Assembly: GCA_947624745.1 (NCBI GenBank)
Contig: CANQLR010000001.1
Coordinates: 1 to 64,000 of the forward strand
Direction: 5' to 3'
Length of the DNA: 64,000 bases
Origin: an uncultured Clostridia bacterium
GTDB taxonomy: Bacteria > Bacillota > Clostridia > Oscillospirales > Ruminococcaceae
In this document: piece after piece, positions 6,525 to 53,708 of the stretch
Position numbering within the stretch: position 1 is the stretch's first letter
Layout of the letters: the number at the start of each line of letters is the position of its first letter
Notes under the pieces: generated by a model
Databases searched by the model: none
What the model was told of the DNA's origin: nothing
What the model saw: the letters and a program-made list of their open reading frames with translations, nothing else
Program-made: the position numbers and the translations under genes

Positions 6525-6619
6525 GGGGCGAAGCCCCTGCGCGGGACCCTGTCCCGCGCGGCCGGGAGGCTCCGCCTCCCGGCCTAACGGACGCTCCGCG
6601 TCCGTTAGGGGCTTCGCCC
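6525..6619. repeat. Triple-hairpin element, class I, copy 1
   Basis: Ends are GGGGCGAAGCCCC (6525-6537) and GGGGCTTCGCCC (6608-6619), which are reverse complements. Between them are three perfect hairpins: 6539-6559 (stem GCGCGGGAC, loop CCT), 6560-6584 (stem GGCCGGGAGGC, loop TCC) and 6585-6607 (stem TAACGGACGC, loop TCC). It sits between the serA terminator and the comEC promoter. The rest of the 430-bp gap (6386-6524, 6620-6664) has only a small TCACC/TTC/GGTGA hairpin near 6449. Confidence 0.9.
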
Positions 6620-6664
6620 ACCCCGCACACCCCACTTCTCAGCCCCATCTTTCCCCCTAAAAAA

Positions 6665-6704
6665 GCCTCTCCCCCAACAGCCGCAGGGCTGCCGGGGAGG
6701 GGTT
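6665..6704 (-). terminator. Probable terminator of serC-serA
   Basis: Stem built from CTCCCC with CAGC pairing to GCTG and GGGGAG, two small internal bulges. Read on the minus strand it is followed by a T-run (AAAAAA on the plus strand, 6659-6664). About 30 bp beyond the serA stop. Confidence 0.65.
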
Positions 6705-6733
6705 CACAATAACACGAAACAATTCGACGAAGT

Positions 6734-7888
6734 TTAGATTACTCTCACGCCGGTCACGCCGTCGATCTTTTCGATGTTCGCGGTGTTCACGGCGCCGGTG
6801 ACGTCGAGCATGGTATACGCCCAATCCTTCTTGGATTTCGAGGCGATATTCTCGATGTTTCCGCCGTCCGCCGAGATAACGCCGGTTATCTGGGTGATGA
6901 TGGCGGGCACGTTCTTATGGATAACGCAGACAAGACAGTCCGCGGTTTTTGCGAGGTCTACGTCGGGCAGGTTTACCGAGTTGTGCACCCTGCCGTGCTC
7001 CAGATAGTCGATGAGCTCGCGGGCGGCCATAACCGCGCAGTTGTCCTCCGATTCGGGGGTGGAAGCGCCAAGGTGAGGTATCGCGGTCACGCCCTCCGCG
7101 CCGATCTGTTCGTCTGTCGGGAAGTCGGTGATGTACGCGGCGACCTTCTTTTCGGCGAGCGCGGCCAGAATGTCGGCCGAATTGACAAGCTCGCCCCTTG
7201 CGAAGTTGAGTATCCTCACGCCGTCCTTCATCTTCGCGATGGCTTCGGCGTTCACGGTGTCCTTGGTGTCCTTGTTGTAGGGCAGGTGCAGGGTCAGGTA
7301 ATCCGCGGCGGCGAAAACGTCGGCGGTCGACTTCGCGATATTCACTCTCGGGTCGAGGCCCAGAGCGGCGTTCACCGACAGGAACGGGTCATACCCGACG
7401 ACGGTCATGCCCAGCGAGAGCGCGGTGTTCGCGACCTTGACGCCGATCGCGCCGAGGCCTATGATACCGAGAGTCTTGCCCATGATCTCGGGCCCCGCGA
7501 ACTGGCTCTTGCCCTTTTCGATGAGTTTAGATACCTCGTCGCCGCTGCCCTTAAGGGTCTTTGCCCAATCAATGGCGGCGGGAATTTTGCGGGAGGTCAG
7601 AAGAAGTCCCGCGATGACGAGCTCTTTAACGGCGTTGGCGTTCGCGCCGGGGGTGTTGAATACGCAGATGCCCTCTTCGGAGCAGCGCTCGACCGGAATG
7701 TTGTTTACGCCCGCGCCCGCCCTCGCGATGGCCTTGAGGGTGGGGGCGAATTTTTCCTCGAGCATATTTGCCGAGCGTACCATAATGCCGTCGGGCGATG
7801 CCTCGTTGTCGGTGACGGTGTACTTTTCGCGGTCGAAAAGATCCGTCCCGCAGGCGGCGATCTTATTTAAGGTCAGAATATTGAACAT
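6734..7888 (-). CDS. serA: D-3-phosphoglycerate dehydrogenase
   Basis: 384 aa. Oxidises 3-phosphoglycerate to 3-phosphohydroxypyruvate with NAD, the first step of serine synthesis. The Rossmann motif GLGAIGVKVA is near residue 145, RGELV carries the substrate arginine region, and HLGASTPESE carries the catalytic histidine. The last ~70 residues (CLVCVIHKNVPAIITQITGV) form an ACT-like regulatory domain, so serine feedback is likely. It follows serC by 39 bp, and the pair forms most of the serine pathway; a phosphoserine phosphatase is not in the window. Confidence 0.96.
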   Translation of the reverse strand: MFNILTLNKIAACGTDLFDREKYTVTDNEASPDGIMVRSANMLEEKFAPTLKAIARAGAGVNNIPVERCSEEGICVFNTPGANANAVKELVIAGLLLTSRKIPAAIDWAKTLKGSGDEVSKLIEKGKSQFAGPEIMGKTLGIIGLGAIGVKVANTALSLGMTVVGYDPFLSVNAALGLDPRVNIAKSTADVFAAADYLTLHLPYNKDTKDTVNAEAIAKMKDGVRILNFARGELVNSADILAALAEKKVAAYITDFPTDEQIGAEGVTAIPHLGASTPESEDNCAVMAARELIDYLEHGRVHNSVNLPDVDLAKTADCLVCVIHKNVPAIITQITGVISADGGNIENIASKSKKDWAYTMLDVTGAVNTANIEKIDGVTGVRVI

Positions 7889-7927
7889 AGCGATTTCCTT
7901 TCGTTTTCGGGGCTTTTTGGCCCTATT

Positions 7928-9007
7928 TTAAGCGTTTTCGGCTTCAAACTTGCGCATGAACGCGACCAGCTTCTCAACGCCCTCAACAGGCATTGCGTTA
8001 TAGATCGACGCTCTCATGCCGCCGACCGAGCGGTGGCCCTTGATGTTGATGAAGCCGGCCTTCTTGGCCTCCGAAACGAACTTCGCGTCCATTTCGTCGT
8101 TGCCGGTCACGAACGGAATGTTCATGATCGAGCGCTCCGGCCCGGTGACTGTGGGCTTGAAGAGCTTCGAGCCGTCGAGGAAATCATAGAGTATCGCGGC
8201 CTTTTTCTCGTTGATCTTCTTCATCGCCTCAAGGCCGCCCTTTTCCTTCACCCAATCGAGGACAAGGCCGAGGATATAGATGCCGTAGGTCGGGGGAGTG
8301 TTATACATCGACCCATTTTCGGCGTGAGTCTTATAGTTGAACATGGTCGGGGTGATGTCGCGGGCGTTCCCGATGAGATCCTCCCTGATGATGACGACGG
8401 TCAGACCCGCAGGGCCCATATTCTTCTGCGCGCCGGCGTAGATGAGGCCGAACTTCGAGACATCGACAGGCTCGGAAAGGATGCAGCTCGAAAGGTCGGC
8501 CACAAGCGGGACCTTGCCGGTGTCGGGCAGCTCGGGGAAGCGGGTGCCGTAGATGGTGTTGTTGAGGCAGATGTGGAAGTAGTCGGCGTCGGGAGTGAAC
8601 TCCTTCGGGTCGAGCTTCGGGATATATGAGAAGGTCTTATCCTTCGAGCTTGCGACGACCTTGCACTCGCCGTAGCGCGAGGCTTCCTGATAGGCCTTGG
8701 TTGCCCACTGGCCGGTCAGGACGAAATCAGCCTTGCCGGAACCGTTCATCAGGTTGAGCGGGACCATGGCGAACTGGCTCGAAGCGCCGCCCTGCAAAAA
8801 CAGTACCTTGTAGTTGTCGGGGATAGACATGACCTCGCGGAGCTTGGCCTCGACCGAGTCGATGATCGCCTGATATTCCTTCGAGCGGTGAGACATCTCC
8901 ATGACCGACTGGCCGGTCTCGCCGTATTCAAGCATCTCGTCGGCGGCTTTTTTAAGTACCTCTTCGGGCAGCATTGCGGGGCCCGCGCTGAAATTGTAAA
9001 CTCTCAT
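7928..9007 (-). CDS. serC: Phosphoserine aminotransferase
   Basis: 359 aa, standard SerC length. N-terminal VYNFSAGPAMLPEEVL, the substrate-binding FLQGGASSQFAMVPLNL and the PLP lysine in AGAQKNMGPAGLT are all present. It converts 3-phosphohydroxypyruvate plus glutamate to phosphoserine (and may also serve pyridoxine synthesis). First gene of serC-serA, with a strong promoter 36 bp upstream and the ribosome site AGGAGG (reading minus strand) before ATG 9007. Confidence 0.97.
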   Translation of the reverse strand: MRVYNFSAGPAMLPEEVLKKAADEMLEYGETGQSVMEMSHRSKEYQAIIDSVEAKLREVMSIPDNYKVLFLQGGASSQFAMVPLNLMNGSGKADFVLTGQWATKAYQEASRYGECKVVASSKDKTFSYIPKLDPKEFTPDADYFHICLNNTIYGTRFPELPDTGKVPLVADLSSCILSEPVDVSKFGLIYAGAQKNMGPAGLTVVIIREDLIGNARDITPTMFNYKTHAENGSMYNTPPTYGIYILGLVLDWVKEKGGLEAMKKINEKKAAILYDFLDGSKLFKPTVTGPERSIMNIPFVTGNDEMDAKFVSEAKKAGFINIKGHRSVGGMRASIYNAMPVEGVEKLVAFMRKFEAENA

Positions 9008-9042
9008 GATAAGTCCTCCTGTTACAAAATTGGATCATATAA

Positions 9043-9071
9043 ATTATACGCCATCGGCGCACAAGTGTCAA
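9043..9071 (-). promoter_or_regulatory. Promoter of serC-serA
   Basis: Minus strand TTGACA (9066-9071), 17-bp spacer, TATAAT (9043-9048): both hexamers match the sigma-A consensus. No attenuator or riboswitch is evident in the short leader. Confidence 0.85.
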
Positions 9072-9247
9072 CCCCACAAAGACAAAAATATTAAGAACAC
9101 TTTCCGCGCGGTTTTGTAAATATTGACGAACGCCGCGAAGGCGCGCAGATACAGCAAGTGCGCCCCTAAGGACGCACCTGCTGCAAGAAGTGGTTTATAC
9201 AATTTGAAGATGGCAATTATCAGGCGGGAATGTCCCGCAGGACCGTT

Positions 9248-12214
9248 TTAGGCAACGATCTCGAAGCCGTAGAGGACAGCTCCGTCCTCGGCAACGACAT
9301 AGACGTTTCTCCAGCTGCTGTCGGCGATGCAGTCCTTACCGGCCGCCAGGAAGTCGGCAACAGGAAGGGTGATGATGGTGAAGTCGTCGCCTTCTTCAAC
9401 AACGATGTTCTCCATGTCGACTATGCCGCCGTTCTCCGACTCGATACCGAAAGCGGTGATGGTGCCGGTGTAGGTGATCTTGATGGTCGCGTCGGCGTTC
9501 TTGTTCATCGCGTCGATGAGAGCGTTGTAAACGGTGCCGGAACCGACCCAGCTGGTCGCGAGGCGGGTCCTGCCGTCGCTGGTCACGAGCTTAAGCCCGC
9601 CCGCGATGGTGAGATCCTCGAAGTTTTGACCGGCGGTGGTCTCCATTACATAGAGCGCGTCCTCGGCGGGAGTATAGTTGAGCTTCGGCTTAGCGGGAGC
9701 CTTAGTCTCGGTGGTTTCGGTCTTGTTGACCTTGTAGGCCTCGGGCTGAGTCTCGCCGCAGATTATGCACTTGCCGTCGACGAACTGGTGAGGCACGGTG
9801 AGCATTCTGCCCTTGACGAGGTGGCCGTGGTACTGCTTGGTGATCCTGATCGGATAGGCGAAGGTCTTGCCCTCCTCCTCGGGACGGTAGCCGCCGCAAT
9901 CCGGGCAGGTCTTCTGGCCGTTCACGAACGGGCACTTCTCGGCCTTATCAATAGTCTCGCCGCACTTGGTGCAGACGACCGTGTGGGTGCCGTCGCCGTT
10001 CGGGGTGTACTCAAGCTTATCCTCGGGGTGCTTGCAGGCAGCCTTAGCGCCGCACTTGGTGCAGATCTCGTCCGCGCCGTAGGTGCAGGCCTCGGTCTCG
10101 ACCTTTTCATACTTGCAATCCGGGCAGGTAGTGGTCACGGTGTGCTTGCCGTCAGCCGCAGGAGTGTAAACAGCCTTGGCGTTCTTATGCTCGCAGCCGC
10201 GGCCGCAGTCCTTGCAGGCGTGGGTCTTTTCGTCGTAAACGCACTTGGCGGTGGTAGTCTTAACGACCTCGCCGCAGACGGTGCAGGTCTCGGTAGTGAT
10301 GTGCTGATCGTCGTTCTTTTCGTCCTTGACGGTCTTGGACTCGGTCTTAGCGTGCTCGCACTTGATACCGCAGACGGTGCAAACGCCGTCCTTATAGGTG
10401 CACTTCGCGGTCTCGACCTTCTCATAGTCGCACTTGGTGCAGACGGTGGTGATAGTGTGGACGCCGTCCTTAGCGGTCTTGGTGACCTTAAGGGTGTGCT
10501 CCTCGCTGTCGATGACCTTCTTGCAGTTCGAGCAAACTACGTTGTGGGTCTTGCCGTCCTTAGCGTCGGCGTATGTAGTCTCGTAGCCTTCGTGCTTGCA
10601 GGCCTTCTTCTCCTCGGGCATTTCGGCGCCGCAAACGGTGCACTTTTCGTCGGAGCCGTAGGAGCAGTCGGAAGTGGTGGTCTTAACTACCGCGCCGCAG
10701 GTGTCGCAGGTGGTAGTGATAGTATGGGTCTCGGTGTCTTCTACATGGACAGCCTTGCCCTCGGTGGTGTCTTCGTGAGCGCACTTAGCGCCGCAGACGG
10801 TGCAAACGCCGTCCTTTTCGGACCAATCGTGCTTTTCAGCGGGTAAAGTGGAGAGGTCATGAACCTGTCCGCATTCCGCGCAATAGAAGGTGACAGAGTG
10901 AGTGCCGTCGCCATTGTCCTTGATTTCGGGCTTAGCATCGTTAGCGGGTTCGCATTCAACGCCGGCTTTGGTGACCTCGCCGCAGGTGTCGCAGACTAAA
11001 TCATGAGTTTTGCCGTCTTCGTTAGATACGGCAGTAGTCTTTTCATGCGGGCACTTTGCACCGCAAAAAGTGCAAACGCCCTTTTCGTAGGTGTGCTTTC
11101 CAGTAGTGGAAGGAAGCTCCTGCTCGCAAAGTGTGCAAACAGCGCTTACAGTATGCGTGCCGTCCTCGTTGTCAACAGCAGTACCCTTGCCAGAGCAATC
11201 TTCCGTGGTGCCTATAGCCTCGCCGCAATCAAGGCAGCGAACGATAGTGTGGGTCTTGCCGTCAGCATTGGACTTGTATTCCAAGGTCTCGTGCTCACAT
11301 TCGGGAATAGCGGTAACGGTGGTAATAAGAGTGAACGTATCACCTTCTTTGACGTGAGTGGTGACATCAGATACGTCATAATTAGGATTCCAGCAAAGCT
11401 GCGAGGCATTGTCTTTCTCTAAGGCTGCCAAAAGTGTCGCAGCAGGAATAGAAACAGTTGTTCCGTTTACGGTCGTATCTGCGCTCAAATTTTCCCATCT
11501 TGTGAAAGATGTTGCATTAGAATAGCTTTGGTTTTGAATAACCAGCTGGCACCAGAACGAATATTGTGATACATGGTCTATATCAGCTTCCGGAACCAAT
11601 ACGGAGAATTTCGCGCCGGGAAGGGCAAGAGCCTCCATAAAATCAGCTATTTTGTCCCCCCCCACAACATTAGCCCATCCGCCTTGGCCAATTGAAGTAA
11701 CCGCGCCGGCAGTGGAAGTAGAGGTGTTTGTGAAAGCAGTGAAAATATCATTGCCGTCTTCTTTATGTAAAATAGAACGGGCAATGGTAGTAGTAGAGGT
11801 GTTTTCGTCTTTAGTCTGGAAGAAAATCTTTACAATAGTTTTTTCGGGGTCTATTGACAAAACTGCACCAGTATCGCCCTTAGTAACGCCTATCATGTTG
11901 CTCGTTCCGTCGTCATACTCAACGCAAAGCTGCAAATTACAGCCAGAGCCGCCTTCGCCGAACAAAACGCCGTAGGAATCGTAGCCGGTTACATTAAGGG
12001 TATCATAACCAAGCATGCCCCACTGATTTGTGAAGGTAAGGACATGAGTTTCCTCGTCGTATGAGCCCTGAGCGTTCATAGACGTCATCGGCGTGAACAG
12101 ATTTATCGGGTTTTTCTCGGGCGCCGCGCTCGCAGCGCTCGCCGAAACGGACAGCGCGCCCACCGACAGAATCATGGCAAGTGCTAAGAGCGCTGCCAAT
12201 ATTTTCTTTGTCAT
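9248..12214 (-). CDS. Large secreted protein with 18 CxxC motifs in tandem repeats
   Basis: 988 aa. A signal peptide (MTKKILAALLALAMILSVGA, cleavage near ASA) is followed by a ~280-residue domain of beta-rich look. Residues ~300-830 contain 18 CxxC pairs (for example CTVCG, CDTCG, CTKCG, CPDCG) in 25-50-residue units with recurring DGTHTV or GKTHNV between pairs. The C-terminal ~130 residues (from YVMETTAGQNFEDL) resemble the N-terminal domain in style. Such units could bind zinc or form disulfides outside the cell; no function is known to me. No sortase motif or surface-binding domain was seen. Its 5' third (11.3-12.2 kb) is visibly more AT-rich than the repeats. Confidence 0.9.
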   Translation of the reverse strand: MTKKILAALLALAMILSVGALSVSASAASAAPEKNPINLFTPMTSMNAQGSYDEETHVLTFTNQWGMLGYDTLNVTGYDSYGVLFGEGGSGCNLQLCVEYDDGTSNMIGVTKGDTGAVLSIDPEKTIVKIFFQTKDENTSTTTIARSILHKEDGNDIFTAFTNTSTSTAGAVTSIGQGGWANVVGGDKIADFMEALALPGAKFSVLVPEADIDHVSQYSFWCQLVIQNQSYSNATSFTRWENLSADTTVNGTTVSIPAATLLAALEKDNASQLCWNPNYDVSDVTTHVKEGDTFTLITTVTAIPECEHETLEYKSNADGKTHTIVRCLDCGEAIGTTEDCSGKGTAVDNEDGTHTVSAVCTLCEQELPSTTGKHTYEKGVCTFCGAKCPHEKTTAVSNEDGKTHDLVCDTCGEVTKAGVECEPANDAKPEIKDNGDGTHSVTFYCAECGQVHDLSTLPAEKHDWSEKDGVCTVCGAKCAHEDTTEGKAVHVEDTETHTITTTCDTCGAVVKTTTSDCSYGSDEKCTVCGAEMPEEKKACKHEGYETTYADAKDGKTHNVVCSNCKKVIDSEEHTLKVTKTAKDGVHTITTVCTKCDYEKVETAKCTYKDGVCTVCGIKCEHAKTESKTVKDEKNDDQHITTETCTVCGEVVKTTTAKCVYDEKTHACKDCGRGCEHKNAKAVYTPAADGKHTVTTTCPDCKYEKVETEACTYGADEICTKCGAKAACKHPEDKLEYTPNGDGTHTVVCTKCGETIDKAEKCPFVNGQKTCPDCGGYRPEEEGKTFAYPIRITKQYHGHLVKGRMLTVPHQFVDGKCIICGETQPEAYKVNKTETTETKAPAKPKLNYTPAEDALYVMETTAGQNFEDLTIAGGLKLVTSDGRTRLATSWVGSGTVYNALIDAMNKNADATIKITYTGTITAFGIESENGGIVDMENIVVEEGDDFTIITLPVADFLAAGKDCIADSSWRNVYVVAEDGAVLYGFEIVA

Positions 12215-12276
12215 ATATATGACCTCCTAATTCATTTTTCAAATTACACCCTCTCGGGCAATAATCCACGTTACTA

Positions 12277-12305
12277 ATTTTGCCACATTTCTTACGAAAT
12301 GTCAA
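12277..12305 (-). promoter_or_regulatory. Promoter of the CxxC-repeat protein gene
   Basis: Minus strand TTGACA (12300-12305), 17-bp spacer, CAAAAT (12277-12282). The leader to ATG 12214 is about 55 nt and contains AGGAGG just before the start. Confidence 0.75.
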
Positions 12306-24770: not shown

Positions 24771-24871
24771 GGCTCGGGGCGAAGCCCCGACGGTCGCTTC
24801 GCGACCGTCGCTCGGCTCCTTCGGAGCCGAGCGGTGCGCCCTCAGGGCGCACCGGGGGCTTCGCCCGAGCC
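24771..24871. repeat. Triple-hairpin element, class I, copy 2
   Basis: Ends GGCTCGGGGC/GAA/GCCCC (24771-24788) and GGGGC/TTC/GCCCGAGCC (to 24871). Arms: 24789-24809 (stem GACGGTCGC, loop TTC), 24810-24832 (stem GCTCGGCTCC, loop TTC), 24833-24853 (stem GGTGCGCCC, loop TCA). None of these three arms recurs elsewhere in the window, yet the layout is identical. It separates phoU from the phoP promoter by sitting exactly between them. Confidence 0.92.
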
Positions 24872-31070: not shown

Positions 31071-31226
31071 GAGGCGAAGCCCCAAAGCCCACGAAGTGGG
31101 CTTTGTCCGCCGTCCGGAAAGATTAGTACAGTTTTTTTAAAAGGCAGAAAATTCGACGGTTTGCAAAGCTTTGTAAATACTGCGACGGCGGGAAGCACGC
31201 CGAAGGCGTGCTTAGGGCTTCGCCCT
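31071..31226. repeat. Triple-hairpin element, class II, copy a (reverse orientation)
   Basis: Ends GAGGC/GAA/GCCCC (31071-31083) and GGGC/TTC/GCCC (31215-31225). Arms: 31084-31104 (stem AAAGCCCAC, loop GAA); a long middle arm CCGCCGTC (31107-31114) pairing with GACGGCGG (31184-31191); and 31193-31213 (stem AAGCACGCC, loop GAA). The ~70-nt interior of the middle arm is AT-rich and, read in reverse, contains AGCTTTGCAAACCGTCGAAT, shared with the other class II copies. Confidence 0.88.
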
Positions 31227-31519: not shown

Positions 31520-31618
31520 AGGGCGAAGCCCCGGGGTGTGCGCTCCGTGCACACCCGCCGGACCCGCAAGCGGGTCGGGCACGGCGGCAGCTTCGCTGCC
31601 GCCTCGGGCCTTCGCCCT
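31520..31618. repeat. Triple-hairpin element, class I, copy 3
   Basis: Ends AGGGC/GAA/GCCCC (31520-31532) and GGGC/CTTCG/CCCT (to 31618). Arms: 31536-31554 (stem GTGTGCGC with one G-T pair, loop TCC), 31561-31576 (stem GACCCG, loop CAAG) and 31583-31603 (stem GGCGGCAGC, loop TTC). It flanks composite locus A and ends just before the GNAT gene stop. Confidence 0.9.
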
Positions 31619-35048: not shown

Positions 35049-36869
35049 ATGATTAGAAACGATCTGCGAAACGTCGCAATTATCGCCCACGTCGACCACG
35101 GAAAGACGACTTTGGTCGACGGAATGCTCCGCCAGTCGGGCACTTTCCGCCAGAACCAGGCGGTCGCCGAGAGGGTAATGGACTCGAACGACATCGAGCG
35201 GGAGAGGGGCATTACTATTTTGGCCAAAAACACTTCGGTGATGTATAAAAATGTAAAGATAAACATCGTCGACACCCCCGGCCACGCCGATTTCGGCGGC
35301 GAGGTCGAGCGCATCTTAAAGATGGTGGACGGGGTAATCCTTCTTGTCGACGCCGCCGAGGGGCCCATGCCGCAGACGAGGTTCGTTTTGCAGCACGCCT
35401 TGGAGCTCGGCCACAGGGTAATTATAGTCATTAACAAGATCGACCGCCCCGACGCGAGGATAGACGAGGTCATCGACGAGTGCTACGAGCTTTTGATGGA
35501 CCTCAACGCCTCGGACGTGCAGCTCGACAGCCCTATTCTGTTCTGCTCGGGCCGCGACGGCACTGCCTCGTTAGATGAACACACCGTCGGCACCGACCTT
35601 GTTCCGCTTTTCGACAAAATTTTGGAATACATTCCCGCCCCCGAGGGCGAGCCGGAGCAGCCGCTCCAGATGCTCGTCAGCTCGATCGACTACAACGAAT
35701 ACGTCGGCAGGATCGCCATCGGAAAGATCGAGCGGGGGACGGTAAAGGTCAACCAGGAGGTCATGATCTGCGACTATCACCACTCGAAGAAGGAGTACCG
35801 CGGCAAGGTCGTAACGCTTTATCAGATCAACGGTCTCGAGCGCACACCCGCCGAGAGCGCAATGGTCGGAGACATCGTCTGCATCAGCGGGATCGAGAAC
35901 ATCACCATCGGGGACACCGTATGCGACTATCAGAACCCCGAGCCTCTGCCGTTCGTGAAGATAAGCGAGCCGACGGTCGAGATGACGTTTTCTGTCAACG
36001 ACAGCCCGTTTGCGGGGCGTGAGGGGAAATATGTCACCTCTCGGCATATCCGCGAGAGGCTTTTCAGGGAGCTTCTGAAGGACGTTTCCCTGAGGGTCAC
36101 CGAGACCGATTCGACCGACAGCTTCAAGGTCGCGGGCAGGGGCGAGATGCACCTGTCGATACTCATTGAAAACATGCGCCGCGAGGGGTACGAGCTCGGC
36201 GTTTCGACCCCAAGGGTTTTGTATAAAGAGGTTGAGGGGAAGCTCTGCGAGCCTATCGAGGAGCTTGTCGTCGACGTTCCGGAGGCGTCGTTGGGCGCCG
36301 TCATGGAGAAAATGGGCACAAGAAAGGGCGAGATGGTCTCGATGACGCCGATGGGCTCGCGCATGAGGGCAGTGTTCCACGTCCCCGCGAGAGGGCTTTT
36401 CGGCTATCGCAACGAATTTCTCACCGACACCAAGGGCGAGGGGATCATGAGCTCGGTATTTCACGGCTACGAGCCCTATAAGGGGGATATCCCGCGAAGA
36501 ACGAGCGGCTCGCTGGTCGCGTTCGAGGCGGGCGAGGCGGTCACCTATGGGCTTTATAACGCTCAGGAGAGGGGAGCTCTGTTCATCGGCGCGGGCGTGC
36601 CGGTCTATGAGGGGATGATCGTCGGAGTCTCGCCGAAGCCGGGGGATCTCGTCGTGAACGTATGCAAGCGCAAGCACCTCACGAACACCCGCGCAAGCGG
36701 CTCGGACGACGCCTTACGGCTGATCCCGCCGAGGATCTTAAGCCTCGAGGACAGCTTGGAGTTCATCGCGGACGACGAGCTCGTCGAGATCACGCCGAAG
36801 AATATCAGACTTAGGAAGAAGACGCTGTCGAACGTGCAGAGGGCGAAGGATAACTCGAAGTTGAAATAG
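35049..36869 (+). CDS. typA: Translational GTPase TypA/BipA
   Basis: 606 aa, normal length. G1 AHVDHGKTTLVDGML, switch region NDIERERGITILAKNTS, G3 DTPGHADFGGEVERIL and G4 NKIDRPDAR are complete; domains II, III and V and the BipA-specific C-terminal part (GYRNEFLTDTKGEGIMSSVF) follow. It is a ribosome-associated GTPase needed for 50S assembly and stress growth. Monocistronic, AAGGAAGG ribosome site. Confidence 0.97.
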   Translation: MIRNDLRNVAIIAHVDHGKTTLVDGMLRQSGTFRQNQAVAERVMDSNDIERERGITILAKNTSVMYKNVKINIVDTPGHADFGGEVERILKMVDGVILLVDAAEGPMPQTRFVLQHALELGHRVIIVINKIDRPDARIDEVIDECYELLMDLNASDVQLDSPILFCSGRDGTASLDEHTVGTDLVPLFDKILEYIPAPEGEPEQPLQMLVSSIDYNEYVGRIAIGKIERGTVKVNQEVMICDYHHSKKEYRGKVVTLYQINGLERTPAESAMVGDIVCISGIENITIGDTVCDYQNPEPLPFVKISEPTVEMTFSVNDSPFAGREGKYVTSRHIRERLFRELLKDVSLRVTETDSTDSFKVAGRGEMHLSILIENMRREGYELGVSTPRVLYKEVEGKLCEPIEELVVDVPEASLGAVMEKMGTRKGEMVSMTPMGSRMRAVFHVPARGLFGYRNEFLTDTKGEGIMSSVFHGYEPYKGDIPRRTSGSLVAFEAGEAVTYGLYNAQERGALFIGAGVPVYEGMIVGVSPKPGDLVVNVCKRKHLTNTRASGSDDALRLIPPRILSLEDSLEFIADDELVEITPKNIRLRKKTLSNVQRAKDNSKLK

Positions 36870-36905
36870 GGGGCAGCCGGGGCGGGGGTTGATGTATATT
36901 GGGGT

Positions 36906-36999
36906 GGGGCGAAGCCCGTGTGCGCGCGGAGCGCGCACACGCCCGCCGAGTTTTCTCGGCGGGTACGGCGGCAGCGAAGCTGCCGCCCGGGCTTCGCCC
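36906..36999. repeat. Triple-hairpin element, class I, copy 4
   Basis: Ends GGGGC/GAA/GCCC (36906-36917) and GGGC/TTC/GCCC (36989-36999). Arms: 36918-36940 (stem GTGTGCGCGC, loop GGA), 36942-36963 (stem CCCGCCGAG, loop TTTT), 36967-36987 (stem GGCGGCAGC, loop GAA). The third stem equals that of copies 3, 5 and 7, but the loop is GAA here. It starts about 37 bp after the typA stop. Confidence 0.92.
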
Positions 37000-37163
37000 G
37001 TACGCGAATACAAAGTGCCCCCTCCCGCCGGGAGGGGGCTTTCGCATAGTCATAATTCTGCACAAACTTTGAGGGGGTGGGGCTTAAAATAGCATGAGCG
37101 TAGCGAATACCTTATGGCAACTCAGGCGGGGCTTATCGCGAAATTCCGCAAGGCGCGGGGGGA
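37000..37163. repeat. Composite repeat locus B, middle part
   Basis: A hairpin GCCCCCTCCC/GCC/GGGAGGGGGC (37017-37039), then 33 bp of unpaired sequence, the block GGGGCTTAAAATAGCATGAG and CGTAGCGAATACCTT (37073-37116), then GCGAAATTCCGCAAGGCGC leading into the class II element. The order matches locus C in the same orientation and locus A in reverse. Confidence 0.82.
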
Positions 37164-37316
37164 GGGGCGAAGCCCTAAGCACGCTACCGCGTGCTTCCCG
37201 CCGTCGCAGAATTCACAGGCTTTGCAAAATGTCGAATTTTCTTCAATTTGTAAGGATAGCACAAACCCGACTGACGGCGGACAAAGCCCATTTCATGGGC
37301 TTTGGGGCTTCGCCCC
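37164..37316. repeat. Triple-hairpin element, class II, copy b
   Basis: Ends GGGGC/GAA/GCCC (37164-37175) and GGGGC/TTC/GCCCC (37304-37316). Arms: 37177-37196 (stem AAGCACGC, loop TACC), a long arm CCGCCGTC (37198-37205) with GACGGCGG (37273-37280), and 37283-37303 (stem AAAGCCCAT, loop TTC). The long-arm interior contains GGCTTTGCAAAATGTCGAAT, identical in copy c over this stretch. Confidence 0.9.
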
Positions 37317-37426
37317 GGTCACTGCCTCTCCGCCCCCCCTTGCAAAATTCCGCACTTTCCTGCCCCTACTTGTATGTGCAGGCCCACACTTTACTGCATT
37401 AGAGGCACAAAGCGCAGGCTCAGCGC

Positions 37427-37518
37427 GGGCGAAGCCCGTGTGCGCGTCTTACGCGCACCGCCCTCCGAGCAAGCTCGGAGGGCATGGCGGCAGCTCCGCT
37501 GCCGCCCGGGCTTCGCCC
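37427..37518. repeat. Triple-hairpin element, class I, copy 5
   Basis: Ends GGGC/GAA/GCCC (37427-37437) and GGGC/TTC/GCCCC (37508-37518). Arms: 37440-37458 (stem GTGCGCGT, loop CTT), 37461-37482 (stem CCCTCCGAG, loop CAAG), 37486-37506 (stem GGCGGCAGC, loop TCC). It closes locus B. The 110 bp between it and class II copy b contain CTTGTATGTGCAGGCCCACA-like sequence also found before copy 7 (53560-53612). Confidence 0.92.
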
Positions 37519-37568
37519 CCGCCCTACTCCCCCAAAAACCGTCCCCGGGCAGCCCCGCATAAAACAGC

Positions 37569-37597
37569 AAAAGCAGACGTAAAAACGCCTGCTTTTT
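37569..37597 (-). terminator. Terminator of the 37.6-kb lipoprotein gene
   Basis: AAAAGCAG...CGT pairs with ACG...CTGCTTTT around AAAA, each side with one unpaired base; T-rich on both sides, so probably bidirectional. Confidence 0.7.
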
Positions 37598-37629
37598 GTG
37601 TATAGAAGTGCGCATATAAAAATCGGAAT

Positions 37630-38052
37630 TTATTTCTCTGATTTTTCCAAGGCAAACGAGAACCTGCCGTCGTTGCTTTTACCGTCCGATTCAATTATTA
37701 TGTAAATTGTTTTATTGCCTGCAAAAGCGTTGGTTTTTCCTTCAAAAGAACCGTTAGCTTCAAGCTCAAATAAGTTCAGCTTCTCATCGTTATAATCATA
37801 GTAAACTTTTATATCCCCCTCTCCCAACGCCGCTTCATAATTTATAAACACCTCATCTGCGCTTTTGTTCTTTAACTTTATTACATATGTTCCGCTAAAA
37901 CTGTCAAATGAAACCGACGCGTTATTCGGGGTGTTTTCCCTTACCATCAGCATAGCGCTATAATGGCTCACATATTTATTTCCGCAAGCAGATAATGTAA
38001 AACACAATACCAGTGCTGCCGCTGCAATGATTGCCCTTGTAAATTTTTTCAT
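37630..38052 (-). CDS. Small lipoprotein, AT-rich, function unknown
   Basis: 140 aa. Signal peptide with lipobox TLSAC (Cys23), then a ~115-residue domain (SFSGTYVIKLKNKSADEVFI, then GNKTIYIIIESDGKSN) of probable all-beta type. Its codons are clearly more AT-rich than the flanking genes, which suggests acquisition. No family recognised. Bounded by the composite repeat locus on one side and rmuC on the other. Confidence 0.82.
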   Translation of the reverse strand: MKKFTRAIIAAAALVLCFTLSACGNKYVSHYSAMLMVRENTPNNASVSFDSFSGTYVIKLKNKSADEVFINYEAALGEGDIKVYYDYNDEKLNLFELEANGSFEGKTNAFAGNKTIYIIIESDGKSNDGRFSFALEKSEK

Positions 38053-39357: not shown

Positions 39358-40377
39358 TTACCTCACTGTTGAAAGTCCCTCCGAAAGTCCCTGCATTACG
39401 GGCTCGCCCGCTTCGCAGAGCTTCAGGGCGCGGCGGTCGAGGAGCTTAAAGTCCCTCCCGCCGTTGTCCCACCAGACCGAGAGAATATCCCTCTCGGCGG
39501 CTGCGCGGACGAAATATCTGCACCACTCGCGCCGATCGTCCGGGTTATTCTTGTCGACGATGCCCATTTCACCGATGATGACCGGCACGCCGTTTACGAC
39601 GAATTTGTTATACGCTCCGTCAAGGAGCCGATCGACCGTTTTTTTCGCCGCCTCGTCGAAGCGGGTGTTTTCGGGATCCGGCAAAAGCGCCAGACCCTGA
39701 GGGTCGTAGATGTGAATGGATACTATAGGCGCGTTCGCCTTGTCCTCGGGGAGCTTAAACTCCGGCATATAGGCGTGCGCGGGGCCCGCGGCGTAGGAGG
39801 GCACCATCAGAAGCCGCTTTTCGTTGTCCCCGCCCGAGGCGCGGACGGTATCCGTAAAAATTTGGTTATATTTGTTAATATATTCCGCTGCTGCGCGGCA
39901 TTTTTCGTCCTGCATGTCAAGGTGCCATTCGTGCGGGTCGCGAAGTATTCTCGGCTCGTTCATGCCCTCGAATATAAGCCTTTGGGGAGCGGATCTGAAG
40001 CGCTCCGCGATCTGCGACCATATCGCCGAGAGATAAGTACAGCCGCGATTGAAACCCTCAAGGGTAGGCTGAAATTCGTGATTATCGTGATGGATATTTA
40101 TTATCCCGTACATGCCCTCATCCAGCACATAGCCGACTGTCTCCTCGACCCGGGACATGAATTCGGGGGAGATGTTTAAATTTTCGTCGGTATGGCGGTG
40201 CCACGACACGGGCAGGCGCACCGTGTTGAAGCCGAGGTCTTTGATCTTTTTTATCATTTCCCGCGTGGTTACGGGGTTGCCCCAGCCGGTCTCGCCGGAA
40301 GGGGCGTCGAGCGTGTTGCCGAGGTTCCAGCCAAGGCGCATATCGGTGATAAGACGGTGTATCAGGCTTCGCTCCAT
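39358..40377 (-). CDS. GH5 family glucanase without signal peptide
   Basis: 339 aa. Starts directly in the barrel (MRLGWNLGNTLDAPSGETGW), with catalytic acid Glu in EGMNEPRIL and nucleophile Glu in VIIGEMGIVD; NTVRLPVSWHRHTD and HHDNHEFQP line the cleft. GH5 enzymes cut beta-1,4-glucans or related polymers. No signal or anchor is seen, so it should be cytoplasmic, acting on imported oligosaccharides. Twelve bp behind a secreted paralogue, with which it is about half identical by eye. Confidence 0.92.
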   Translation of the reverse strand: MERSLIHRLITDMRLGWNLGNTLDAPSGETGWGNPVTTREMIKKIKDLGFNTVRLPVSWHRHTDENLNISPEFMSRVEETVGYVLDEGMYGIINIHHDNHEFQPTLEGFNRGCTYLSAIWSQIAERFRSAPQRLIFEGMNEPRILRDPHEWHLDMQDEKCRAAAEYINKYNQIFTDTVRASGGDNEKRLLMVPSYAAGPAHAYMPEFKLPEDKANAPIVSIHIYDPQGLALLPDPENTRFDEAAKKTVDRLLDGAYNKFVVNGVPVIIGEMGIVDKNNPDDRREWCRYFVRAAAERDILSVWWDNGGRDFKLLDRRALKLCEAGEPVMQGLSEGLSTVR

Positions 40378-40389: not shown

Positions 40390-41616
40390 TTACTCGGGAC
40401 GGGAGGACTTTATTTCGTCGAGCGGGGTCTCAAGTCCCGCTATAAGCCCGTCGTAGGGCGGTTTTGAGGTATCGAAGACGGTGAGGTTAGTTCGGTCGAA
40501 GAGGCCGAAGGATTCGTTTCCGGGGTCGGTGTGGCCGTTGTCCCACCAGCAGCAGACCATGCCGAGGCTCTTGGCCTTCGCGACAAAGTAGGTCGCCCAG
40601 TCCTGACGGTCGAACGGGTTGTTTTTGTTGATTATCCCCATTTCGTCGATGATGACGCCGACGCCGTTTTTGCCGAATTTGTCATACTGGCGCTGGAAGA
40701 TCTGATCGAGCTCGCGCTTTTCGCTGTCCCCGAATGTGCGGAAGTTCACGTCGGAGTTCATCGCAAGATTATAGGGGGAATAGGCGTGGACGGATATCAG
40801 CTGGTGCCCCTCGGTGGGGTCGTCGGGGAGCTTGAAGGGATCTTGAAGGGAAAATTCGGGCGAGCCGCAGTAGGAGCAAAGGAGGAGGTATCTCTTTTCG
40901 TTTTCGCCGCCCGAGGCGCGCACAACGTCGGTGAATTTTTGGTTGCAGGAGTTTATGACCTCGATGGCTTCGAGGCACTCGGCGTTGTTATAGTCGACCC
41001 ACCACTCGTAGTTGGTGCCGGTGAGGCGGGGCTCGTTCATCGACTGGAAGATGAGGTGCTGGTCATAGTCCTTGAAGCGCTCGGCTATCTGAGTCCAGAT
41101 CTTTTCGATATAGTTGACGCTCTCGGCCTCGTGGGCTTTCGAGGGGTAGTAGAAGTCGTTGTCGTGGTGGGAGTTCAGGATCACGAACATATCGTTTGAG
41201 AGGCAGTAGTTCACGACCTCCTCGACCCGCTGCATCCAGTCCTCGTCGATGACGTAATCGGGCGCGCCGGAGGTGTGGAGCCCCCACGAGGTCGGGACGC
41301 GGACGGTGTTGAAGCCGAGCTCCTTTATCTTGTCGATCATCTCTTTTGTGGTGACCGGCTGGCCCCACGAGGTCTCGCCGTCGGGGGCGTCAAGGGTGTT
41401 GCCGAGGTTCCAGCCGAGCTTCATCTCATCAAGAAGCTCATCCATGGTGTAGTCCTTGGCGGTCTCGGAGCTTTGGTGGACGTTTTCGGCTATCTCGCCG
41501 TCGGTGTGAACGCCTTCAGAGCCTTCGGTCTCGGGGGTCTCGACGGGGGTGTCCCCGCAGGAAACAAGGCTTAAAAGCAGGGTCAGGCTTAAAAGCAGGG
41601 TCAGAAGTCTTTTCAT
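40390..41616 (-). CDS. GH5 family glucanase lipoprotein
   Basis: 408 aa. Lipobox Cys20 (LVSC); a 35-residue Glu/Thr-rich linker precedes the GH5 barrel: MKLGWNLGNTLDAPDGETSW, catalytic Glu in QSMNEPRLT and in VIIDEMGIIN. It should be tethered outside the cell and degrade beta-glucan before the cytoplasmic paralogue finishes the products (inference). No carbohydrate-binding or dockerin module. The signal peptide contains an 18-bp perfect tandem duplication (41567-41602), giving LLLSLT twice. Confidence 0.93.
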   Translation of the reverse strand: MKRLLTLLLSLTLLLSLVSCGDTPVETPETEGSEGVHTDGEIAENVHQSSETAKDYTMDELLDEMKLGWNLGNTLDAPDGETSWGQPVTTKEMIDKIKELGFNTVRVPTSWGLHTSGAPDYVIDEDWMQRVEEVVNYCLSNDMFVILNSHHDNDFYYPSKAHEAESVNYIEKIWTQIAERFKDYDQHLIFQSMNEPRLTGTNYEWWVDYNNAECLEAIEVINSCNQKFTDVVRASGGENEKRYLLLCSYCGSPEFSLQDPFKLPDDPTEGHQLISVHAYSPYNLAMNSDVNFRTFGDSEKRELDQIFQRQYDKFGKNGVGVIIDEMGIINKNNPFDRQDWATYFVAKAKSLGMVCCWWDNGHTDPGNESFGLFDRTNLTVFDTSKPPYDGLIAGLETPLDEIKSSRPE

Positions 41617-49268: not shown

Positions 49269-49284
49269 AGCTCTACCCTCTCCG

Positions 49285-49980: not shown

Positions 49981-49992
49981 GGCTTTCCTCCG

Positions 49993-51273: not shown

Positions 51274-51294
51274 GAGCTCACCTCCGAAAAAACA

Positions 51295-51319
51295 GGATAA
51301 GGCAAAGTACGCCTTATCC
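51295..51319 (-). terminator. Terminator of citrate synthase overlapping the next promoter
   Basis: GGATAAGGC (51295-51303) pairs with GCCTTATCC (51311-51319), followed on the minus strand by TTTTTT (51285-51294 has AAAA AA). The hairpin directly abuts the -10 box of the lipoprotein promoter. Confidence 0.78.
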
Positions 51320-51320
51320 C

Positions 51321-51349
51321 ATTTTAGCACAAATATTCTTATTTTGCAA
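51321..51349 (-). promoter_or_regulatory. Promoter of the lipoprotein/two-component operon
   Basis: Minus strand TTGCAA (51344-51349), 17-bp spacer, TAAAAT (51321-51326). Transcription would start inside the terminator hairpin of the preceding gene. Confidence 0.65.
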
Positions 51350-51383
51350 GAGCTTTGTATCAGCTTTTTGGAAATACCGAGTT

Positions 51384-52742
51384 TCAGCCCCTGTCCTCTA
51401 AGCGGGAGTAGGCCTTCGGCTTGCTGACGGCCTTGTAGGCGGGGCGGATTATCCGGCCGCCGGTGAGGCGCTCCTCGATCCTGTGGGCCGCCCAGCCGGC
51501 GATCCTTGCTGTCGCGAACATCGGCGTGCAGAGCTCGTCGTTGAAGCCGAGCATGCGGTAGCACATTCCCGAGTACATATCGACGTTGGCGCAGAGGGTC
51601 TTTTCCTTGCCGGTGACGGAGGCGAAGACGTCCTGGGCGTTGCGCTCGACCGACTCCAAAAGGGCTATTTCCTCCTCGTATTCGGTGCCGGCGGCGAGCT
51701 TTTTCGCCTCGCGCTTCAAAATTACCGCGCGGGGGTCGGAAAGGGTGTAGACCGCGTGGCCCATGCCGTAGAGCTTGCCGGAGCGGTCGCCCGCCTCTTT
51801 AAGAAGTATCTTTTTGAGCATGTCGCGGACCTCGCCCTCGTCGTGCCAGTTGCGGATATTGGCCTTGAGGTAGTCGAGCTGCTCCAAGATTTTCTGGTTC
51901 GCGCCGCCGTGCAGGGGGCCCTTTAACGCGCCGACCGCAGCGGAGTAGGCGGAGTAGGGGTCTGTTCCCGAAGAAGTAAGCACCCGGCAGGCGAAGGCGG
52001 AGTTGTTGCCGCCGCCGTGCTCGGCGTGGAGCATGAGCATCAGATCGAGCAGCTTTGCCTCCTCGAAGGTATATTTACGGTCGAACCGAAGAAGCGAAAG
52101 AAGGGTTTCGGCGGTGGATTCCTCGGGGCGGACCTGGTGCATATAGAGGGTCTGGGAGTCGTAAAAACGGCGTTTTGCCTGATACGCCGAGGCGACTATC
52201 ACCGGGAGCTTCGCGATTATCGAGATCGCGGTCATAAGCTCTTCCTCGGGGCTTTTGGCCTCGGGGGCGTCGTCGTAGGAATAAAGCGCCAGAATGGAGC
52301 GGGAAATTTTGTTCATTATATTTCTCGACGGGGCCTTGAGGATCATATCCTCGAAAAAGCCGTCGGGAAGCTCGCGGTTGGTGGCAAGGGCATAATCGAA
52401 CGCGCGAAGGGCGTTTTTGGTCGGCAGATTGCCCATCAGAAGGAGGTAGACGACCTCCTCGAAGCCGAAGCGGTCCTCGGTCTCGATGGCTGAGACGATG
52501 TCGGCGATGTTGTAACCGCGGTAGTAAAGCTCGCCGTCGATGTTTTGCTTCTCGCCCTCGTTCATGACGTAGCCGTGGACGTTGCAGATGTTCGTGATAC
52601 CCGCCACGACGCCGGTGCCGTCGGCGTTCCGAAGGCCGCGCTTTACGTCGTACCGGGAGTAATATTTAGGGTCGATGACGTTGTGCTGTTCGATCTTTTC
52701 GATGAGTATCCGTTTCGTGTTCTCTTCAAGCTTCAGCTTCAT
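51384..52742 (-). CDS. gltA: Citrate synthase
   Basis: 452 aa, the longer Firmicute form with an N-terminal extension. Active-site His in EHGGGNNSAFACRVLTSSGT and GPLHGGANQKILEQLD with MGHAVYTLSDPRAVILK, and the Asp in CANVDMYSGMCYRMLGF. It condenses oxaloacetate and acetyl-CoA, feeding glutamate synthesis; no aconitase or isocitrate dehydrogenase lies nearby. Monocistronic with a good promoter. 2-methylcitrate synthase cannot be excluded by motif alone. Confidence 0.94.
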   Translation of the reverse strand: MKLKLEENTKRILIEKIEQHNVIDPKYYSRYDVKRGLRNADGTGVVAGITNICNVHGYVMNEGEKQNIDGELYYRGYNIADIVSAIETEDRFGFEEVVYLLLMGNLPTKNALRAFDYALATNRELPDGFFEDMILKAPSRNIMNKISRSILALYSYDDAPEAKSPEEELMTAISIIAKLPVIVASAYQAKRRFYDSQTLYMHQVRPEESTAETLLSLLRFDRKYTFEEAKLLDLMLMLHAEHGGGNNSAFACRVLTSSGTDPYSAYSAAVGALKGPLHGGANQKILEQLDYLKANIRNWHDEGEVRDMLKKILLKEAGDRSGKLYGMGHAVYTLSDPRAVILKREAKKLAAGTEYEEEIALLESVERNAQDVFASVTGKEKTLCANVDMYSGMCYRMLGFNDELCTPMFATARIAGWAAHRIEERLTGGRIIRPAYKAVSKPKAYSRLEDRG

Positions 52743-52773
52743 GCGCGTTCATCCTTTCGGGGTAGTAAAGACT

Positions 52774-52802
52774 ATTTTAACACAGCGCGGGGGTTTTGTC
52801 AA
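52774..52802 (-). promoter_or_regulatory. Promoter of citrate synthase
   Basis: Minus strand TTGACA (52797-52802), 17-bp spacer, TAAAAT (52774-52779), 32 bp before ATG 52742. Confidence 0.82.
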
Positions 52803-52964
52803 GCAATTTGCATAAATTGAAGGGCGATTATTCATTTTTTGTCGGGAACGGCAAAAAAGTGGGAGAAACGGGGAGGGAATTTGCAGGATTTATGTGGGGG
52901 AATGCAGGGGGGAGACACGCTTGAGGGGGGAAGGCGGGGAGGGTGGGACGGAGCAGGTTGGGGA

Positions 52965-53059
52965 GGGCGAAGGCCCGAGGCGCCCACGGAGTGGGCGCCA
53001 GACCGGGAGGCTCCGCCTCCCGGCCGCGCGGGACAGGGTCCCGCGCAGGGGCTTCGCCC
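52965..53059. repeat. Triple-hairpin element, class I, copy 6
   Basis: Ends GGGC/GAA/GGCCC (52965-52976) and GGGGC/TTC/GCCC (53048-53059). Arms: 52979-52999 (stem GGCGCCCAC, loop GGA), 53003-53023 (stem CCGGGAGGC, loop TCC), 53026-53046 (stem GCGCGGGAC, loop AGG). The second arm equals the second arm of copy 1, and the third is the reverse complement of copy 1's first arm. Upstream, 52803-52964 contains only G-rich sequence. Confidence 0.92.
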
Positions 53060-53351
53060 ACCGCTTAGGCAAGAGCCCCCTCCCGGCGGGAGGGGGCTGC
53101 CGTAGGGCTATGATTTTGCTCAAAGCTCGCTGAGGGTGGGGCTTAAAATAGAATGAGCGAAGCGAATACCTTATGGTGCTCCCCGAGAGAGCTGCTTGAT
53201 TTTTCGGTTTCCCCTCAAAGTCCGACGAGTCCCCTCCCCATCGGGGAGGGGCAGGGGTGGGGGCTCGTAATAGCATAAGTGAGCTCGCGAGCGAATACCT
53301 TTTGCCAGCAAGGTGGGGCAAAAACGAAATTCAGCAAGGCGCAGGGGGTGA
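53060..53351. repeat. Composite repeat locus C, middle part
   Basis: Hairpin GCCCCCTCCC/GGC/GGGAGGGGGC (53075-53097), block copy (53133-53176, GGGGCTTAAAATAGAATGAG and CGAAGCGAATACCTT), a ~50-bp unique stretch, hairpin CCCCTCCCC/ATC/GGGGAGGGG (53231-53251), a second block copy (53254-53303), then AACGAAATTCAGCAAGGCGC into class II copy c. Locus A has the same double-block order. Confidence 0.82.
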
Positions 53352-53504
53352 GGGCGAAGCCCTAAGCACGCTGCCGCGTGCTTCCCGCCGTAGCAGAATT
53401 TCCAAGGCTTTGCAAAATGTCGAATTTCCTGCCTTTTAAATAGACCGTTCTAACCTCTCCGACGGCGGACAAAGCCCATTTCATGGGCTTTGGGGCTTCG
53501 CCCC
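53352..53504. repeat. Triple-hairpin element, class II, copy c
   Basis: Ends GGGC/GAA/GCCC (53352-53362) and GGGGC/TTC/GCCCC (53492-53504). Arms: 53364-53383 (stem AAGCACGC, loop TGCC), long arm CCGCCGT (53385-53391) with ACGGCGG (53462-53468), and 53471-53491 (stem AAAGCCCAT, loop TTC). Middle-arm interior carries GGCTTTGCAAAATGTCGAAT (53406-53425) and CTGCCTTTTAAA, the latter shared with copy a. Confidence 0.9.
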
Positions 53505-53612
53505 GGTCAGTGCCTCTCCCAAAGTTTCGCAAAATCGCTCGCCTTGTGCCCCTACTTACATGTGCAAGCCCGCACTTTTCTGCGTTAGAGGTACAAAGTG
53601 CAGACTCAGCGT

Positions 53613-53708
53613 GGCGAAGCCCCGGGCGCCCACTCCGTGGGTGCCAAAGGCCGCGCTTCGCGCGGCCTTTACGGCGGCAGCTCCGCTGCCGCCTCGGGGC
53701 TTCGCCCC
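53613..53708. repeat. Triple-hairpin element, class I, copy 7
   Basis: Ends GGC/GAA/GCCCC (53613-53624) and GGGGC/TTC/GCCCC (53696-53708). Arms: 53625-53645 (stem GGCGCCCAC with one T-G pair, loop TCC), 53646-53670 (stem AAAGGCCGCGC, loop TTC), 53673-53693 (stem GGCGGCAGC, loop TCC). The first stem equals that of copy 6 but the loop there is GGA, its complement. Confidence 0.92.

What the first reader, a model, noticed from the sequence alone, without database searches (positions are those of the whole stretch)
6525..53708. A family of three-armed triloop elements in intergenic DNA
Seven ~95-bp copies (6525, 24771, 31520, 36906, 37427, 52965, 53613) share one layout: a left end GGGCGAAGCCC, exactly three perfect hairpins with stems of about 6-11 bp, and a right end GGGCTTCGCCC that is its reverse complement. 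Of 21 arms, 17 have a three-base loop. Sequences of arms differ but pairing is kept, which is the mark of selected structure. The end heptamer GCGAAGC is known to form an exceptionally stable DNA mini-hairpin. No U-tract follows them, so they are not ordinary terminators. I know of no named family with this plan. It could be a structured RNA, a cruciform-forming DNA site, or a non-autonomous mobile element.
Basis: partly seen in the sequence, partly recalled or inferred. Interest (0 to 1): 0.88.

Follow-up and report, generated by a model that had tools for sequence, protein, structure and literature searches.

The report
Three-armed cloverleaf repeats in gut Clostridia
Between the genes of some gut Clostridia lie many copies of a short DNA repeat that folds into a cloverleaf with one stem and three hairpins; the hairpin sequences change freely while the pairing stays, which points to an undescribed kind of small, probably mobile, folded DNA element.

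Summary
The seven copies fold as a cloverleaf: the two ends pair as an outer stem enclosing three hairpins. The genome holds 60 copies with exact 11-base ends and 146 with 10-base ends; the reversed pattern gives none. Of 107 copies found by their ends, 106 hold three hairpins. Arms are modules: 76 stem cores; 51 combinations in the 63 copies with all three arms scored. Loops are mostly GNA/TNC (213 of 245 triloops) or CTTG/CAAG, the kinds reported for Streptomyces telomeres, in both orientations equally. A longer relative (152-157 bp, same ends) shows covariation in its arms. A Ruminococcaceae genome (34% GC where read) carries the same plan and similar ends with AT-rich arms. Copies lie outside genes, more often in convergent gaps. 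Y1 and IS110 transposases do not track copy number and target duplications are not above control. Most likely they are non-autonomous mobile palindromes acting as folded DNA; movement is inferred, not shown.

The parts
6526..6619 (.). Short (type A) cloverleaf, 94 bp, between the ComEC-like gene and a 2-hydroxyacid dehydrogenase gene
24777..24866 (.). Type A cloverleaf, 90 bp, between phoU and a response-regulator gene (the latter name is my reading of the sequence); the same element sits at this site in five related species
31521..31617 (.). Type A cloverleaf, 97 bp, outer stem with one internal mismatch
36907..36999 (.). Type A cloverleaf, 93 bp, just downstream of bipA
37427..37518 (.). Type A cloverleaf, 92 bp
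52965..53059 (.). Type A cloverleaf, 95 bp, one extra G in the left end
53613..53707 (.). Type A cloverleaf, 95 bp
31073..31225 (-). Long (type B) element, same ends, middle arm with a long partly conserved loop
37165..37316 (+). Type B element, 152 bp
53352..53504 (+). Type B element, 153 bp
54041..54118 (.). Third family (T2): three hairpins with other ends (GATTTCGC / GCGAAACC); the outer stem is not formed in the best RNA folds of three members, so its cloverleaf is uncertain

Best explanation
These are interspersed, non-autonomous mobile (or formerly mobile) DNA repeats of about 90-97 bp whose working form is folded DNA: a four-way junction with an 11-12 bp outer stem and three hairpins. 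Shown: the plan, the copy number, pairing kept while arm sequence changes, discrete ends, location outside genes, different occupancy of one gene gap in related species. Inferred: an unidentified recombinase recognises the nearly constant ends (GGCGAAGCC / GGCTTCGCC) and perhaps the junction, and moves the unit in single-stranded or cruciform form without duplicating the target. The arms need only to be hairpins; they are re-mixed between copies, and replication template switching across the hairpins keeps the stems perfect and flips the loops.
For: 60 exact-end and 146 10-base-end copies, reversed control 0. 106 of 107 end-defined copies have three hairpins; all 46 end pairs of 80-99 bp in 449 kb have three. 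Of 12 pairs of copies at least 96.5% alike, 6 have all six flank segments at or below 70% identity (background about 55%), so likeness stops at the outer stem; in the others some flank is shared. Complementarity outside GGCGAAGCC/GGCTTCGCC does not exceed that of swapped flanks. Loop orientation is randomised: same loop 375, inverted 403 pairs; one loop is inverted whole (TTC to GAA) at an orthologous site. Loops are 213 of 245 GNA/TNC, 228 of 245 closed by C-G, the kind reported for Streptomyces telomeres. One gap holds four copies here, one T2 element in G319 and no cloverleaf in five other species. All 50 copies with called neighbours are outside genes. In G323 the outer stem pairs in 29 of 33 copies found without using it, against 10 when flanks are swapped.
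Against: No transposase was identified; Y1 and IS110 do not track copy number, though G319 has two intact Y1 genes. Target-site duplications are not clearly above the control. No exact empty site was found: 17 junction-spanning matches were listed, and the three aligned in full show none. One copy has stayed at its site in six species with stems conserved better than flanks (4 of 80 against 28 of 119 variable columns), which also fits a host function. The outer stem of type B shows no two-sided change. Structural scans of 80 kb each in G319 and G300, which do have copies elsewhere, found none.
Confidence: 0.5

Rival explanations
1. A host-used DNA structure: the cloverleaf is a binding site (four-way-junction binder, nucleoid protein, gyrase or topoisomerase) that insulates neighbouring genes, spread by recombination and kept by selection.
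For: Stem constraint at the phoU site; convergent gaps occupied 9 of 20 against 14 of 78 tandem and 5 of 32 divergent; DNA-type loops in both orientations.
Against: Patchy: exact ends absent from 17 of 31 genus members, 10-base ends absent from the 196 other genomes of the order sample; the same gap differs between species; ten genes beside clusters of copies are of varied kinds with no common theme.
Confidence: 0.2
2. An RNA-level element: transcribed at gene ends as a multi-hairpin 3' structure that stabilises mRNA, blocks read-through or acts as a small RNA.
For: Very stable RNA folds; enrichment in convergent gaps; type B keeps conserved unpaired sequence in its long loop. On the + strand overall, G.T non-pairs (22) outnumber A.C (12).
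Against: No T-run after the window copies; median distance to a neighbouring gene's 3' end is 433 bp, to a 5' end 391 bp; triloops of DNA type in both orientations; 0 of 14 non-pairs on the presumed sense strand are G.U (small numbers); no Rfam family reaches its cut-off in the window.
Confidence: 0.15
3. A mutational by-product: template switching at short inverted repeats makes and perfects palindromes, with no mobility or selection.
For: Loop inversion and arm homogenisation are the known footprint of template switching (PMC8604942, start of abstract shown; PMC8794818, passages) and are seen here.
Against: It does not predict three arms in 106 of 107 copies, one pair of end sequences in a fixed orientation, near-identical whole copies in unrelated flanks, or similar ends in a 34% GC genome.
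Confidence: 0.1

Closest known systems
REP / BIME / REPIN elements with RAYT (TnpA-REP) transposases
   Same: Many small palindromic repeats between genes, often clustered, proposed to be mobilised as folded single-stranded DNA (PMC8266576, start of abstract and passages).
   Different: REPs are 20-50 nt palindromes tagged mostly by GTAG; here there are three arms inside an outer stem, GTAG/CTAC within 12 nt of an end in 10 of 107, and only a broken Y1 remnant in the genome.
Streptomyces telomere palindromes ('rabbit ears' / 'clover leaves')
   Same: Several packed palindromes capped by GGA, GNA or CTTG loops with compensatory changes; cloverleaf models (PMC7205883, passages).
   Different: Those are ends of linear replicons; these are internal, with sequence on both sides, in many copies. 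Terminal-protein genes were not looked for.
MITEs
   Same: Short, no gene, inverted ends, many copies outside genes.
   Different: Target-site duplications not above control, no related full-length insertion sequence found (two families searched), and an inner part made of hairpins of free sequence. The definition of MITEs is recalled.
AAV-type terminal repeats (recalled, no call)
   Same: Small arms inside a longer stem, replicated as folded DNA with flip/flop orientations.
   Different: Viral genome ends with two arms; no relation by sequence is claimed.

Membership tests
REP/BIME/REPIN | 20-50 nt single palindrome | tested here: not met
   79-98 bp, three hairpins in an outer stem
REP/BIME/REPIN | GTAG (or CGTC) tag beside the palindrome | tested here: not met
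   GTAG/CTAC within 12 nt of an end in 10 of 107; CGTC/GACG in 4 (no shuffled control run)
REP/BIME/REPIN | RAYT gene in the genome | tested here: not met
   Own genome: only a broken Y1_Tnp remnant. In the genus Y1 hits do not follow copy number (G320 43 copies and G318 11 copies: none; G314 7 copies: ten; G319 41 copies: two) and six loci checked have no cloverleaf beside them
MITE | terminal inverted repeats | tested here: met
   Ends are reverse complements
MITE | target-site duplication | tested here: not met
   Direct repeats at the ends, n=107: 4 bases 25 against 20.5 with swapped flanks, 5 bases 10 against 8.5, 6 bases 3 against 2.3
MITE | related autonomous transposon | tested here: inconclusive
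   Only the Y1 and IS110 families were searched
Streptomyces-type telomere | palindromes capped by GNA or CTTG loops | tested here: met
   213 of 245 triloops GNA/TNC; 45 of 54 four-base loops CTTG/CAAG
Streptomyces-type telomere | located at replicon ends | tested here: not met
   50 of 53 copies in the contiguous sample lie between called genes; 3 near contig edges were not classified
Streptomyces-type telomere | terminal proteins Tpg/Tap | not tested
   not searched
Intrinsic terminator | T-run after the hairpin | tested here: not met
   None of the seven window copies
Rfam RNA families | score above gathering cut-off | tested here: not met
   0 matches in the window; best sub-threshold match at 36800-37650 is 25.8 bits against a cut-off of 48

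The most novel reading that the evidence does not exclude
A new class of selfish DNA element defined by fold: constant ends form the outer stem of a four-way junction, three arms are free modules that need only to be hairpins, and an unknown junction-recognising recombinase moves the folded DNA. Each lineage fits the arms and loops to its own base composition while the ends stay much the same.
Probability: 0.3. Interest if true: 0.9.

Novelty: new variant of a known kind. Interest (0 to 1): 0.74.

Why it matters
It looks like an interspersed repeat whose shared property is a shape (one stem, three hairpins) more than a sequence. It offers a natural collection of many junction-forming sites in one genome for testing DNA cruciform formation, template switching and loop inversion in vivo, and a concrete lead to an unknown enzyme that reads folded DNA.

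Tried and rejected
RAYT/Y1 transposase as mover: own genome has one broken remnant; in the genus, G320 (43 copies) and G318 (11 copies) have no hit while G314 (7 copies) has ten and G319 (41 copies) two. IS110 (RuvC-like): no link; G000 and G320 have one match each below the cut-off and G319 none. Phage carriage: one viral contig matched the pattern and it is not a three-armed element. Exact empty sites by joining flanks: 17 junction-spanning matches listed; the three aligned in full are a diverged repeat with a gap at the junction (L042), a simple-sequence match (L087) and a match that runs towards another copy (L020). The other 14 were not aligned one by one; several involve flanks that contain a neighbouring element.

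Energy ranking of triloops with the DNA and RNA parameter sets in ViennaRNA was uninformative: they give these loops equal energies. A covariance model was not built; a pairing-only detector and end patterns were used because arm registers differ. The first gene calling put most copies inside spurious ORFs; it was replaced by a codon-usage caller, and 3 copies near contig edges were left unclassified there. In G000 the outer-stem test without outer requirement is uninformative because the ends are constant (15 of 18 against 15.0 control). The DNA search for the 6526 neighbourhood matched only the dehydrogenase side, in 5 of 6 species; none of these 5 has a cloverleaf in the stretch taken, but gene order differs. 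For the type B alignment 24 of 38 matches were used; 13 partial ones and one diverged full-length one were left out.
Full report
WHAT IS THERE. Folding shows more than three hairpins in a row: the left and right ends pair with each other (11-12 pairs) and close a cloverleaf, a four-way junction with one stem and three hairpins; z-scores are -4.9 to -11.1, and 18 of 21 loops have three bases (the 52965 copy lacked its first 4 bases there). A detector that uses pairing only finds 6 of the 7 and one different element at 54041, and nothing in five shuffled windows. Two arms of copy 31521 and one of 53613 are not fully Watson-Crick.

COPY NUMBER AND SHAPE. The window's genome (2.57 Mb, 100 contigs) holds 60 copies with exact 11-base ends and 146 with 10-base ends; the reversed control pattern gives 0. 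In a 449-kb contiguous sample plus further stretches chosen around exact copies, 107 copies were found by their ends (up to one mismatch in each, length 79-98 bp); 106 of 107 contain three hairpins and one contains two. That search was limited to about 77-119 bp, so the length test was repeated without it: among nearest end pairs in the 449 kb, all 46 of 80-99 bp have three hairpins; one of 70-79 bp and one each of 110-119 and 120-129 bp have two; those of 140-169 bp (23) have three to five, mainly type B; 12 of 20-69 bp have one. No TTC-left/GAA-right pair occurs at 70-119 bp; two GAA..GAA pairs of 70-89 bp are an end beside a neighbouring sequence or an arm. In several stretches copies follow each other at spacings of about 107-138 bp.

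ARMS AND LOOPS. Of 320 arms 269 are perfectly paired. The 259 perfect arms of at least 7 bp use 76 different inner stems; in the 63 copies with all three arms scored there are 51 different combinations. Triloops number 245: TCC 58, GGA 51, GAA 50, TTC 48; 213 are GNA or TNC (30.6 expected if all triplets were equal), 104 against 109 in orientation, and 228 are closed by C-G. The middle arm has a four-base loop in 50 of 107 copies, arm 1 in 1 and arm 3 in 3; 45 of the 54 four-base loops are CTTG or CAAG. Among arms with the same stem core, loops are the same in 375 pairs, inverted in 403, otherwise one base apart in 431, two in 114 and three in 464.

PAIRING IS KEPT. Type B (152-157 bp, same ends, middle arm with a long partly conserved loop) was aligned from 24 of 38 matches: 97.3% of cells pair against 90.9% after shuffling, and 15 pairs show a change on both sides against 7.2, with no shuffle of 500 reaching either; the number of further pair types is not above shuffles (25 against 24.2). 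The two-sided changes lie in the three arms (7, 4 and 4 pairs); the outer stem of type B has none and so gives no covariation support. For type A, arm pairs differing at 1-2 of 8 stem positions show 4734 positions changed on both sides and 865 on one side; these comparisons are not independent. Against this, at the phoU site the four variable stem columns among six species are one-sided changes in every species.

ORTHOLOGOUS SITES. The copy between phoU and the response regulator is present in G000, G315, G319, G314, G148 and G044; G313 has phoU about 91% alike in DNA but another gene there and no copy. Over six species, 4 of 80 stem columns vary, 5 of 9 loop and linker columns, and 28 of 119 flank columns. 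In G315 the first loop is inverted whole, TTC to GAA. A second gap, after a peptidase gene, holds four copies here; in G319, where both sides align, it is 232 bp against 606 bp and holds one T2 element. In the 1.1-1.2 kb taken from G314, G313, G315, G148 and G044 there is no cloverleaf; the downstream side aligns in G314, G148 and G044 but not in G313 and G315. The 6526 site has no copy in five species, but gene order differs. Downstream of bipA one of six species, G319, has a cloverleaf.

UNIT AND INSERTION. Of 101 copies with enough flank, 12 pairs are at least 96.5% alike; in 6 of them no flank segment exceeds 70% identity (background about 55%), for example C1:64557 and C1:156846; in the other 6 some flank is shared. 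Some copies share a flank motif with CAAAG(C/T)G about 12-14 bases away. Complementarity does not extend beyond the ends, and direct repeats at the ends are hardly commoner than with swapped flanks (5 bases: 10 against 8.5; 6 bases: 3 against 2.3; n=107). Of 53 copies in the 449 kb, 50 have called neighbours and none of these is in a gene; 9 of 20 convergent, 14 of 78 tandem and 5 of 32 divergent gaps of at least 92 bp are occupied; convergent gaps hold 20 of 50 copies against 25% expected by length, a length to which the copies themselves add. Ten genes beside clusters of copies are of varied kinds (release factor, MscS-like, ChlI-like, M28 peptidase, solute-binding protein, MatE, choloylglycine hydrolase family, NUDIX, GH10 and others), none a transposase.

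WHO HAS IT. Exact ends: 14 of 31 genomes of the genus (G000 60, G320 43, G319 41, G318 11, the rest 1-9), and 3 of 297 in the family sample, all of the own genus; with 10-base ends only the own genome among 197 of the order sample. In 13 Clostridia MAGs of that scan the detector found copies; 12 of them give 209 of 248 triloops of GNA/TNC type, and the thirteenth, Ruminococcaceae RUG14213, 0 of 8. In the stretches of other phyla it found 2 structures in 88 kb of Roseomonas and none elsewhere. The RUG14213 genome (G323, 1.6 Mb) gives 47 matches to GGCGAAR..YTTCGCC against 4 for the control. In 227.5 kb of stretches chosen around such matches (34.2% GC) the detector finds 84 structures, some of them probably chance in AT-rich DNA, against 1 in a shuffle. 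Copies found there without using the outer stem pair their flanks (run of at least 7) in 29 of 33 cases, against 10.05 with flanks swapped; outer stems vary together, for example GGCGGCAAGCC with GGCTTGCCGCC. Loops there are mostly TTT, AAA and four-base AT loops, so the GNA rule does not hold in that lineage. The same plan with similar ends and AT-rich arms is the strongest sign that shape and ends matter, not arm sequence. Controls: 0 triples of perfect hairpins in about 336 kb of family genomes and 240 kb of three genus members without exact-end copies; the looser detector gave 5 irregular hits in the family sample, none in 80 kb each of G307, G308 and G310, but also none in 80 kb each of G319 and G300.

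HOW IT MAY WORK. DNA-level folding is favoured: DNA-type loops in equal orientation, no G.U among 14 non-pairs on the presumed sense strand (small; on the + strand overall G.T 22, A.C 12, other 50 of 2923), no T-run, distance from gene ends. Loop flipping and perfect stems match template switching: PMC8604942 (start of abstract) states that it homogenises inverted-repeat arms and inverts spacers, and PMC8794818 (passages) describes loop inversion and compensatory change. I take the elements to be non-autonomous mobile DNA moved by an unidentified enzyme that reads the constant ends. That step is inference: RAYT/Y1 and IS110 do not fit, no precise empty site was obtained, and a host-used DNA structure remains possible.

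KNOWN OR NEW. No Rfam family reaches its cut-off in the window (permissive search of 36800-37650). The listings of paper searches in the open library named no three-armed family that I recognised; I opened passages of three papers only, and most subscription papers are not held. REP membership fails on size, tag and transposase; MITE membership on target duplication; Streptomyces telomeres share the loops but not the place. I file it as a new variant of interspersed palindromic repeats.

Noticed in passing
31073-31225, 37165-37316, 53352-53504: A longer family (type B) with the same ends, a middle arm with a long partly conserved loop and covarying arms; its loop may carry a function of its own.
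   Followed up: partly
54041-54118; also G315 and G319 loci L206, L214: A third family (T2) of three hairpins with different ends; about ten members in the 449-kb sample and relatives in related species (listing cut). Its outer stem is uncertain.
   Followed up: partly
449-kb sample of G000: Twelve GGCGAAGCC..GGCTTCGCC pairs of 20-69 bp with a single hairpin inside; could be remnants, deletion products or precursors.
   Followed up: no
37075-37117 and 53134-53176: A 43-bp repeat (95% alike) between type A and type B copies; these intergenic regions are mosaics of several repeats.
   Followed up: no
flanks of some copies, e.g. just left of 37427 and 53613: A shared flank motif with CAAAG(C/T)GCAG 12-14 bases from the element on one side, and ACAAAGTGCCCCCTCCC on the other side of some copies.
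   Followed up: partly
9248-12214: Long ORF with repeated coding units of 39-48 bp.
   Followed up: no
40189-40344 and 41272-41427: 156-bp direct repeat, 74% alike, inside two neighbouring ORFs.
   Followed up: no
53759-53956: Three copies of a 26-bp repeat spaced 86 bp apart downstream of the last type A copy.
   Followed up: no
L172 (G313): At the phoU site this species has an unrelated gene between phoU and the response regulator and no cloverleaf.
   Followed up: no
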